A DNA stretch of 64,000 nucleotides from Sphingomonas ginkgonis (GTDB lineage Bacteria; Pseudomonadota; Alphaproteobacteria; Sphingomonadales; Sphingomonadaceae): positions 1,606,501 through 1,670,500 of the forward strand of contig NZ_RWJF01000001.1 in NCBI RefSeq assembly GCF_003970925.1, read 5' to 3'. The translations under genes were made by a program, and so were the position numbers. The notes beneath the pieces were generated by a model that was not told where the DNA came from, ran no database searches, and saw only the letters and a program-made list of their open reading frames with translations. Below are positions 25,793 through 27,122 of the stretch, one piece after another. Within the stretch, counting starts at the first letter, position 1. The number at the start of each line of letters is the position of its first letter.

Positions 25793-25944
25793 GAGTCAAT
25801 TGCGCCACACCACTACCGATTGAGTCCGGAAGACTCGCGATGACTCAACATCTTGTGCCCGGCTCGGAATGGACTCCTTCCGTTCCGCCGCTCGCCCGGG
25901 TCGCGTTAACCCTTCTTCTGTTGACGCGGAGTCCGCGCGGACTC
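25793..25944. promoter_or_regulatory. Cluster of seven GANTC methylation sites upstream of ccrM
   Basis: GAGTC or GACTC occurs at 25793, 25822, 25832, 25842, 25872, 25929 and 25940. Four of them (25822 to 25872) are at exact multiples of 10 bp. The region lies between rnhB and the GANTC methyltransferase gene. A TTGACG at 25921-25926 could be a -35 element with GANTC sites directly downstream, but no convincing -10 follows; a GTTAACCC half-site (25905-25912) resembles part of a CtrA box without its partner. Confidence 0.75.
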
Positions 25945-25979
25945 ACCCTGCCATGCAATCTCTTGGGGGCACGTCACCG

Positions 25980-27122
25980 ATGAACATGATTCTTCCCGTC
26001 ACGGAGGAACTCGGCCGCTCGCGGCCGCTCGCCAAGCGCGAGGCCCCGACCTGGACGCTGCCGCTCGACCAGATCCTGATGGGCGACTGCATCACCGAGA
26101 TGGCGCGCCTGCCGGCCAAGTCGGTCGACATGATCTTCGCCGACCCGCCCTACAATCTCCAGCTCGGCGGCGAGCTGTTCCGCCCCGAGGGCGGGCGCGT
26201 GGATGCCTGCGACGACGACTGGGACAAGTTCGACAGCCTGGCCGCCTATGACGATTTCACCCGCGAGTGGCTTGCGGAGGCGCGGCGGATCCTCAAGGAC
26301 AACGGCACGATCTGGGTCATCGGCAGCTACCACAACATCTACCGCGTCGGCTCGCTGCTGCAGGATGCCGACTTCTGGATCCTCAACGACATCGTCTGGC
26401 GCAAGGCCAACCCGATGCCTAACTTCCGCGGCACCCGCTTCACCAATGCGCACGAGACCCTGCTGTGGTGCGCCAAGGACGAGAAGGCCCGCTACACCTT
26501 CAACTATCGCGCGATGAAGGCGCTGAACGACGACCTGCAGATGCGGTCGGACTGGGTGCTGCCGATCTGCTCGGGCGGGGAGCGGGTGAAGGGCAACGAC
26601 GGCGGCAAGGCACATCCGACGCAAAAGCCGGAGGCGCTGCTCTACCGGATTCTGCTCGCCTGCACCAAGCCGGGCGACGTGGTGCTCGACCCCTTCTTCG
26701 GGACCGGGACGACCGGCGCGGTGGCGCGCCGGCTCCAGCGGCGGTGGATCGGGATCGAGCGCGAGCGGGCCTATGTGAAGGTTGCCTCCGAACGCATCGC
26801 CTCGACCCTGCCGCTGGACGAAAGCGCCATGCAGACCGTTGCCGACAAGCGCAGTCAGCCGCGCGTTGCCTTCGGTCTGCTGGTCGAGAGCGGGATGGTG
26901 CCGCCGGGCGCTACGCTGACCGATTCCAAGCGGCGCTGGACGGCCAGCGTGCGGGCCGACGGCAGCCTGGCATGCGCAGAGCATTCGGGCTCGATCCACA
27001 AGGTCGGTGCCGCGCTTCAGGGCGCGCCAAGCTGCAACGGATGGACGTTCTGGCATGTCGAGCAGGACGGTGCGCTGGTCGTCATCGACGCGCTTCGGCA
27101 GAAGCATCTCGCCGGCCTCTAA
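25980..27122 (+). CDS. ccrM: CcrM-type DNA adenine methyltransferase (GANTC)
   Basis: CcrM methylates the adenine of GANTC and links DNA replication to transcription in alphaproteobacteria. The 380-residue beta-class enzyme has the catalytic [10 protein letters not shown] (DPPY 55-58), the CcrM-typical [30 protein letters not shown] in outline, [10 protein letters not shown] and the SAM motif [10 protein letters not shown] (near 240), followed by the C-terminal DNA-binding domain (residues about 280-380). ATG 25980 is used; ATG 25869 is in frame but would add 37 residues not found in the family and put three GANTC sites in the coding region. GGGGG lies 10 nt upstream. Confidence 0.95.

What the first reader, a model, noticed from the sequence alone, without database searches (positions are those of the whole stretch)
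25793..25980. Seven GANTC sites packed in front of the GANTC methyltransferase gene
GAGTC/GACTC occurs at 25793, 25822, 25832, 25842, 25872, 25929 and 25940, seven in 152 bp. With about two-thirds GC and random bases I estimate roughly half a site for that length. All have G or C as the central base; none is GAATC or GATTC. The sites at 25822, 25832, 25842 and 25872 are spaced by exact multiples of 10 bp, so they face the same side of the helix. CcrM in Caulobacter is known to be controlled by methylation of GANTC sites in its leader; the number and phasing here suggest a stronger, perhaps multi-step sensor that reads the hemimethylated state after replication, possibly through GcrA.
Basis: partly seen in the sequence, partly recalled or inferred. 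Interest (0 to 1): 0.82.

Follow-up and report, generated by a model that had tools for sequence, protein, structure and literature searches.

The report
Nucleotide-sensor operator controlling methylase gene
The cluster of methylation sites in front of this DNA-methylating enzyme's gene looks like two known switches side by side: a landing place for a protein that senses the supply of DNA building blocks, with methylation sites built into it, and a promoter carrying two more methylation sites, which suggests that these cells tie DNA marking to DNA-precursor supply.

Summary
In detail: seven GANTC sites in 152 bp before ccrM, where about 0.2 is expected. The cluster is two conserved modules, not one sensor.

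(A) 25810-25858 matches a paired operator of NrdR (dATP/ATP-sensing repressor of ribonucleotide reductase genes). A matrix trained only on nrdA upstreams scores it 30.1 bits, against 29.0 for this genome's nrdA operator and at most 18.0 in 539 background windows. 93 of 99 family genomes exceed the 99th percentile. GANTC sits in the inner half of each box (66 and 73 of 89 family operators), almost never in the outer halves (1 of 178), and in no inner half of 26 nrd operators. The central base is always G left, C right, as the NrdR palindrome wants.

(B) 25921-25949 is a promoter with GANTC at +8 and +19 from TTGAC, widespread in Alphaproteobacteria, the kind linked to GcrA.

Operator-promoter distance in the family changes mostly by whole helical turns. 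Other families of the order keep the operator inside rnhB, with a rare CTA codon in 36 of 36.

My searches found no paper linking NrdR to ccrM. Binding, direction and methylation sensitivity are inferred. An RNA hairpin was tested and rejected. Outside the order the signal is weaker; rhizobia-type loci lack it.

The parts
25148..25777 (+). rnhB (ribonuclease HII), gene upstream of ccrM
   Evidence: NF000595, 228.5 bits; PF01351
25793..25797 (+). GAGTC flanking the NrdR operator on the left (offset 0 of the conserved block)
   Evidence: in 92 of 99 family genomes a GAGTC/GAATC is followed by an ACACC-type word, always at +14 (two of the 92, L012 and L058, judged false anchors)
25810..25825 (+). 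NrdR box 1, CCACTACCGATTGAGT; its inner half overlaps GAGTC 25822-25826
   Evidence: pair score 30.1 bits with a matrix trained on nrdA upstreams; best pair in the whole 64-kb window
25822..25826 (+). GAGTC in the inner half of NrdR box 1 (its first G is the conserved G13 of the box)
   Evidence: GANTC here in 66 of 89 family operators; GAGTC in 66 of 66
25832..25836 (+). GACTC in the 17-bp spacer between the boxes; variable between species
   Evidence: 19 counts at offsets 37-41 over 92 genomes
25842..25846 (+). GACTC in the inner half of NrdR box 2 (its last C is the conserved C4 of the box)
   Evidence: GANTC here in 73 of 89 family operators; 70 of 70 are GACTC among those of the 99-genome set
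25843..25858 (+). NrdR box 2, ACTCAACATCTTGTGC; starts 33 bp after box 1 (17-bp spacer)
   Evidence: spacers of 14-17 bp are bound by NrdR in PMC12051234 (passage)
25872..25876 (+). GACTC flanking the operator on the right, followed by CTTCCGTTCC (family consensus nTTTCGTTC); usually at offset 67-69, here +79
25906..25911 (+). TTAACC, CtrA-like half site (name recalled) between operator and promoter
   Evidence: TTAACC in the 250 bp upstream in 40 of 99 family genomes; highest of 90 permuted 6-mers (their mean 3.9)
25921..25926 (+). -35 element TTGACG of the ccrM promoter
   Evidence: 96 of 99 family genomes have TTGAC followed by GANTC; here it starts 78 bp after the start of box 2, the modal spacing
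25929..25933 (+). GAGTC in the promoter spacer (+8 from TTGAC)
25940..25944 (+). GACTC in the promoter (+19 from TTGAC); its last C is the first base of the -10 hexamer
25944..25949 (+). -10 element CACCCT (A at +24 in 77 of 77 and T at +28 in 56 of 77 family genomes with GANTC at +19); start site predicted near 25956
   Evidence: the start site is inference; a generic sigma-70 scan found no promoter
25980..27122 (+). ccrM, GANTC adenine methyltransferase (N6_N4_Mtase + RAMA); start codon chosen by eye
   Evidence: NF050803 CcrM 628.9 bits (under its curated cut-off of 830), PF01555, PF18755

Best explanation
The region is a two-module control element for ccrM. Module A (25793-25876) holds a paired NrdR operator. 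NrdR loaded with ATP and dATP binds both boxes and bends the DNA. From about 100-140 bp upstream of the start it acts, on a fixed face of the helix, on RNA polymerase at module B (25921-25949), a sigma-70 promoter whose -35/-10 interval carries two GANTC sites. This puts ccrM under the same dNTP sensor as ribonucleotide reductase, most likely as repression when dATP is plentiful. In Sphingomonadaceae the operator's inner half-sites contain GANTC, so that CcrM methylates adenines next to the GC pair that NrdR recognises. I infer that full methylation favours NrdR repression and that hemimethylation after the fork passes relieves it, giving a negative feedback. The promoter GANTC pair is inferred to need GcrA. 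Shown here: the sites, their match to the nrd operators, their conservation, the GANTC placement and the phased spacing. Inferred: binding by NrdR, direction of control, effect of methylation, GcrA dependence, start site.
For: Matrix trained only on nrdA upstreams (29 given, 27 contributing pairs): ccrM operator 30.1 bits, own nrdA operator 29.0 although that one was in the training set; 93 of 99 family genomes above the 99th percentile and 83 of 99 above the maximum (18.0) of 539 own-genome windows; control segments of the same loci above the 95th percentile in 12 of 99. 300 permuted symmetrical matrices never reach the observed mean (20.9; permuted maximum 17.4). Operator above 18.0 bits in 35 of 38 genomes without rnhB upstream, so it goes with ccrM. 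Other families of the order: all 37 score at least 15.2 bits and 33 of 37 above 18.0; in 36 both boxes lie inside rnhB, and the leucine codon in box 2 is CTA in 36 of 36 against 10 of 506 in-frame leucine codons further upstream; the 37th (L155) has the pair outside rnhB. Named genomes: 54 of 79 above the maximum of 315 null windows. Inner halves with GANTC 66 and 73 of 89, outer 1 and 0 of 89; nrd operators inner 0 and 0 of 26, outer 6 and 0. Box 2 to TTGAC distances 66-70 (11), 76-80 (56), 88-90 (13), 98-99 (2), one at 48; starred branches force at least 6 changes for each of the 67 and 89 classes. nrdR present, 166.5 bits, with D15, R17 and RRRR, the residues PMC9110341 names (passages). 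TTGAC plus GANTC in 96 of 99.
Against: No binding or expression data. The operator lies well upstream of the promoter, whereas NrdR boxes often overlap the polymerase site, so NrdR might activate here or serve another start. The GANTC-bearing halves depart from the NrdR consensus and could bind weakly. Outside the order the signal is weaker: 20 of 40 genomes above 11.1 bits, 11 of 40 above 18.0; GANTC in 11 of 68 half-sites against 6.6 expected; no clear helical phase (15 genomes). In loci I take for Rhodobacterales (14 of 17 above the null maximum) both boxes lie in rnhB in 13 and box 1 in all 17, so protein conservation could feign part of the match; I ran no codon test there. The Hyphomicrobiales-type loci have no operator and 0-2 GANTC. 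6 of 99 family genomes fall below the 99th percentile. The main null is one GC-rich genome. In the other families of the order one distance (136) is off the series. The tree for the phasing rests on 73 columns, is poorly resolved and its bootstrap had not settled.
Confidence: 0.8

Rival explanations
1. One reading: a GANTC cluster that reads hemimethylation by itself, through GcrA, all sites having one role.
For: Cluster far beyond chance and conserved; the promoter pair has the position seen at methylation-timed promoters (PMC4287350 passages); gcrA present; ccrM in Caulobacter is said to be transcribed only from hemimethylated DNA (PMC2217572 passage).
Against: Does not explain the conserved non-GANTC bases, the fixed central base (66 of 66 GAGTC left, 70 of 70 GACTC right), the fixed box spacing or the match to the nrd matrix.
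Confidence: 0.1
2. NrdR operator as described, but the GANTC sites in it are not read: they are tolerated, or serve some other purpose such as local methylation.
For: The box consensus already supplies C4/G13 and C2/G15, so GANTC needs few changes; the other families of the order and the Rhodobacterales loci keep the operator mostly without GANTC inside.
Against: Inner halves carry GANTC in 66 and 73 of 89 operators against 0 of 52 inner halves of nrd operators and 1 of 178 outer halves; in the 99-genome set 136 are seen against about 21 expected from local density in 86 operators.
Confidence: 0.35
3. An RNA stem-loop or cruciform formed by the GAGTC/GACTC inverted repeats in the ccrM leader.
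For: GAGTC left and GACTC right can pair; folds of single sequences are somewhat more stable than mononucleotide shuffles (mean z -1.9; 38% under -2).
Against: Own arms pair no better than arms swapped between species (4.54 against 4.58 of 8; permutation p 0.64; 61 genomes). No Rfam match. The block lies upstream of the predicted promoter.
Confidence: 0.02
4. The operator belongs to another protein that shares the NrdR-like palindrome.
For: Inner halves depart from the nrd consensus; conserved flanks of the GAsTC-n-TTTCG kind on both sides are not explained by NrdR.
Against: Both boxes and their usual 16-17 bp spacer match NrdR rules; the score equals that of the own nrdA operator.
Confidence: 0.07

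Closest known systems
NrdR operators of ribonucleotide reductase genes (two NrdR boxes)
   Same: Two palindromic 16-bp boxes with conserved C4/G13, 17-bp spacer (14-17 bp bound in PMC12051234, passages); found by a matrix trained on nrdA upstreams.
   Different: Stands before a DNA methyltransferase gene, not a reductase gene; well upstream of the predicted promoter; GANTC in the inner half-sites.
Methylation- and GcrA-linked Caulobacter promoters (ctrA P1, podJ P2)
   Same: GANTC between -35 and -10 of the promoter (PMC4287350 passages); GcrA binding depends on methylation (PMC3667746, title and passages).
   Different: Two GANTC 10-11 bp apart in one promoter, the second abutting the -10; GcrA dependence untested here.
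Caulobacter ccrM control (CtrA activation, probable methylation feedback)
   Same: ccrM most probably methylation-controlled (PMC3973325 passage) and transcribed from hemimethylated DNA (PMC2217572 passage); a TTAACC half site is present here too.
   Different: No NrdR input is mentioned in the passages seen; the Caulobacter ccrM upstream itself was not examined here.

Membership tests
NrdR operator | Two palindromic boxes resembling those of nrd promoters in the same clade | tested here: met
   30.1 bits against 29.0 for the own nrdA operator; null maximum 18.0 of 539 windows
NrdR operator | Boxes spaced by about three helical turns (14-17 bp spacer) | tested here: met
   17-bp spacer here; start-to-start 33 bp in 49 and 32 bp in 20 of 90 anchored genomes at the same offset; rule from PMC12051234 passage
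NrdR operator | NrdR encoded in the genome with its DNA-contact residues | tested here: met
   TIGR00244 166.5 bits, cut-off 124.65; D15, R17, RRRR read in the translation
NrdR operator | NrdR binds it | not testable with these tools
   needs a binding assay
NrdR operator | Lies upstream of a ribonucleotide reductase gene (true of the known ones, not a condition of binding) | tested here: not met
   The gene is ccrM; this is the new aspect
GcrA/GANTC promoter | GANTC within -35/-10 of a sigma-70 promoter | tested here: met
   +8 and +19 from TTGAC; 96 of 99 family genomes have at least one such GANTC
GcrA/GANTC promoter | GcrA encoded | tested here: met
   PF07750 136.9 bits
GcrA/GANTC promoter | Expression depends on GcrA and methylation | not testable with these tools
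   needs mutants
CcrM methyltransferase | N6_N4 methylase plus RAMA domain, CcrM profile | tested here: met
   PF01555, PF18755; best NCBIfam NF050803 628.9 bits, though under its cut-off of 830
Structured RNA leader | Covariation of stem pairs | tested here: not met
   swap test p 0.64, 61 genomes

The most novel reading that the evidence does not exclude
ccrM is an old member of the NrdR regulon in Alphaproteobacteria, and in Sphingomonadaceae the operator has become methylation-gated: CcrM marks adenines beside the GC pair that NrdR reads, so one DNA element combines dNTP supply and passage of the replication fork to set when the cell's own methylase is made.
Probability: 0.4. Interest if true: 0.9.

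Novelty: new variant of a known kind. Interest (0 to 1): 0.8.

Why it matters
CcrM timing is a core step of the alphaproteobacterial cell cycle, studied mostly through CtrA, GcrA and DnaA. A conserved NrdR operator in front of ccrM adds a metabolic input, the dNTP pool. Together with the reported drop of nrdA expression in a Caulobacter ccrM mutant (PMC3973325 passages) it suggests a two-way link between DNA-precursor supply and DNA methylation. NrdR is described as a reductase-specific repressor (PMC9110341 abstract in the listing), so a cell-cycle target would be a surprise, and methylation sites inside its boxes make a direct, cheap test possible. The operator kept inside rnhB coding sequence in sister families is also a clear case of a regulatory site constraining codons.

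Tried and rejected
RNA hairpin: first impression from a few species with long stems; rejected by the swapped-arm test. An Rfam scan of 25000-27200 gave nothing.

Bimodal presence: seemed to show that many of the first 30 relatives lacked the cluster. This was my error (14 minus-strand loci read the wrong way round), corrected.

Simple 10-bp phasing of all sites: not conserved. Generic promoter and terminator scan: nothing. Place relative to the origin: GC skew of 11 stretches and the window showed no clear origin or terminus. The nrdR and gcrA loci carry no operator pair (4.4 and 7.2 bits).

Rows dropped: L012 and L058 as false anchors before and in the offset count; sequences without GANTC at both inner places from the swap test (61 of 92 kept); L113 and L114, no box pair seen, before matrix training (29 of 31 nrdA loci given, L130 and L141 not contributing), and those 31 loci are the own one plus the 30 best of 58 genomes with a match; operators under 15 bits; 81 of 99 rows in the tree; L283 for short upstream; L155 from the codon count as not coding. 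At least four named loci are the same sequences as unnamed ones (L252/L027, L240/L045, L246/L181, L264/L174), so the named set is not independent. L179 holds N letters, which my scripts read as A.

Full report
Observation. GANTC is rare in this genome: 82 in the 64-kb window against 318 expected from shuffles, and 320 in 220 kb with at most 3 in any 200 bp. Seven in 152 bp has P about 4e-9 per window. The gene downstream is ccrM (PF01555 plus RAMA; best NCBIfam model CcrM, 628.9 bits, under a cut-off of 830), start most likely at 25980. rnhB lies upstream and a dihydropteroate synthase gene downstream.

Conservation. CcrM was found in 99 of 99 searched genomes of the family. With 69 further upstream regions all 99 have at least two GANTC within 300 bp upstream; the commonest numbers are 6 (27 genomes), 5 (22) and 7 (20). 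My first reading of the 30 initial loci was wrong for the minus-strand ones and was corrected. Two blocks emerge. Block A: GAGTC (GAATC allowed), an ACACC-type word always 14 bp later in the 92 of 99 genomes with this anchor, and further GANTC near 29, 49 and 68. Block B: TTGAC with GANTC 6 to 11 and/or 19-20 bp on, in 96 of 99.

Block A is not an RNA structure. Pairing between the arms outside GANTC is the same for a genome's own arms as for arms swapped between genomes (4.54 against 4.58 of 8, p 0.64, 61 genomes).

Block A is a NrdR operator. In this genome the recalled NrdR consensus hits 25843 with 12 of 16 matches, the only such hit in the window, and 25810 with 11; the nrdA upstream region holds two similar boxes 31 bp apart. 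A matrix was then trained, by iteration from the recalled consensus, only on nrdA upstreams of the family (29 given, 27 contributing). Applied to ccrM it gives 30.1 bits here (own nrdA, itself a training member: 29.0), more than the 99th percentile of 539 own-genome windows in 93 of 99 genomes and more than their maximum of 18.0 in 83 of 99. Among 90 anchored genomes the best pair starts at offset 17 with spacing 33 in 49 and 32 in 20. Segments of flanking DNA from the same loci exceed the 95th percentile in 12 of 99. 300 permuted matrices never reach the observed mean. The spacer is 17 bp, inside the 14-17 bp that NrdR proteins bind (PMC12051234, passages). The genome has nrdR with D15, R17 and RRRR, the residues described for NrdR-DNA contact (PMC9110341, passages).

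It belongs to ccrM. Where rnhB was not found upstream, the operator is still there in 35 of 38 genomes (48 of 61 with rnhB). In 37 genomes of other families of the same order (37 taken of 60 outside the family; the order is in the GTDB sense and includes Kordiimonadaceae, since L174 equals the named L264) every best pair scores at least 15.2 bits and 33 of 37 exceed 18.0. In 36 of the 37 both boxes lie inside rnhB. There the leucine codon in box 2 is CTA in 36 of 36, although CTA makes up 10 of 506 in-frame leucine codons upstream, and GGA-TAT is fixed in box 1. The remaining genome, L155, has a 30.0-bit pair outside rnhB. In 40 genomes of other orders (40 taken of 95 outside the family with a match), 20 exceed 11.1 bits and 11 exceed 18.0. 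Of 80 named loci (L283 dropped) 54 of 79 exceed the maximum (17.0) of 315 null windows: by my sorting of the names 36 of 41 Sphingomonadaceae, 14 of 17 Rhodobacterales, both Kordiimonadaceae and 2 others; none of the Hyphomicrobiales-type loci, which have 0-2 GANTC. In the Rhodobacterales loci box 1 lies in rnhB in 17 of 17 and box 2 in 13, so I lean on the results within the order. AT-rich genomes may score higher by composition.

GANTC inside the operator. In 89 family operators (of 102 regions; the others score under 15 bits) GANTC lies in the inner half of box 1 in 66 and of box 2 in 73, but in the outer halves in 1 and 0. In the 99-genome set the inner halves hold 136 where local density would give about 21 in 86 operators. 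In 26 nrd operators the inner halves have none and the outer half of box 1 has it in 6. The central base is G on the left in 66 of 66 and C on the right in 70 of 70, which CcrM does not require but the NrdR palindrome (G15, C2) favours. The terminal G or C of the site is the conserved GC pair of the box, so methylated adenines are its neighbours. Among 17 operators of other orders GANTC lies in 11 of 68 half-sites (6.6 expected), so the fusion is mainly a Sphingomonadaceae trait; L185 shows the same arrangement.

Block B. In 77 family promoters with GANTC at +19 the next base is A in all 77, and T stands at +28 in 56: the site abuts a weak -10 element cAnnnT. Promoters with GANTC at +7 to 10 or +19 to 20 from TTGAC/T are found in 37 of 37 genomes of the other families and 34 of 40 of other orders. 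In Caulobacter, GANTC between -35 and -10 goes with a defined time of activation (PMC4287350, passages), and GcrA binding depends on methylation (PMC3667746, title and passages). gcrA is present.

Phasing. The distance from box 2 start to TTGAC in 83 family genomes is 66-70 (11), 76-80 (56), 88-90 (13), 98-99 (2), with one at 48; in the other families of the order 109-112 (33), 98 (1), 122 (2) and 136 (1); in other orders no clear phase (15 genomes). On a tree of 81 CcrM N-termini the classes need 19 changes, and starred branches force at least 6 for each of the 67 and 89 classes; the tree rests on 73 columns and is poorly resolved, which can inflate the count. Within the family, changes of about one helical turn were thus accepted repeatedly and others hardly at all, which speaks for a protein on the operator acting on the promoter from a fixed face.

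Mechanism. I take NrdR to repress ccrM when dATP is high, as at nrd genes, with GANTC methylation adjusting its hold. Repression in the fully methylated state and release in the hemimethylated state would fit the statement that Caulobacter ccrM is transcribed only from hemimethylated DNA (PMC2217572 passage). The sign is a guess; activation is possible at this distance.

Literature. Searches for NrdR with CcrM, with Caulobacter, with GANTC, with DNA adenine methyltransferase, and ccrM with ribonucleotide reductase listed no paper whose title or abstract start proposes NrdR control of ccrM, and the passages I opened (PMC10483419; PMC12186491; PMC5343134; PMC12176259) do not; the other listed papers were not opened for this. 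PMC5343134 counts 186 NrdR regulons and does not name ccrM in its main text; its supplement was not seen. PMC12176259 cites a study of a possible interaction of Acinetobacter NrdR with DNA adenine methyltransferase (reference title only, cut off in the passage). A Caulobacter nrdR deletion spreads more on soft agar, which its authors tie to dNTP levels (PMC12186491 passages). Subscription papers are mostly outside the library, so the absence is provisional.

Noticed in passing
ccrM promoters of relatives, e.g. L035, L051, L072 (not in the window): A perfect DnaA box TGTGGATAA lies at +28 from TTGAC, over the predicted start site, in 30 of 99 genomes; the word occurs in the 250 bp upstream in 36 of 99 loci against a mean of 0.05 for 200 shuffled words. 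DnaA may control ccrM directly in part of the family.
   Followed up: partly
window 25906-25911; relatives: TTAACC, a CtrA-like half site, occurs in the 250 bp upstream of ccrM in 40 of 99 family genomes, mostly in one orientation (GGTTAA 7 of 99).
   Followed up: partly
window 25793-25802 and 25872-25881; block A of relatives: The two outer GANTC sites are both followed by TTTCG-like words (GAGTC-yTTnCG and GACTC-nTTTCGTTC), a direct repeat about 68 bp apart in relatives that NrdR does not explain.
   Followed up: no
L143-L179 except L155: NrdR operator embedded in rnhB coding sequence with rare codons kept (CTA 36 of 36).
   Followed up: yes
L002 against window: The only other genome of the same genus in the set has the operator one helical turn closer to the promoter (class 67 against 78).
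   Followed up: partly
L241 (Sphingomonas sp. PP-CE-1G-424): A Sphingomonas CcrM locus without any GANTC in 300 bp upstream and without operator (4.5 bits), perhaps a second or moved copy.
   Followed up: no
Rhodobacterales loci, e.g. L266, L284, L291: A strong box CCACAATATCTTGTAT or similar 31-32 bp after a weaker one in rnhB: possibly the same operator with other codons.
   Followed up: partly
nrd operators of L117, L124, L126, L132, L135, L140: 6 of 26 nrd operators have GATTC at the outer edge of box 1, so some reductase genes may feel methylation there.
   Followed up: partly
L185 (another order): An operator-like pair with GAGTC and GACTC in both inner halves 20 bp apart, as in Sphingomonadaceae; shared or convergent origin not examined.
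   Followed up: no
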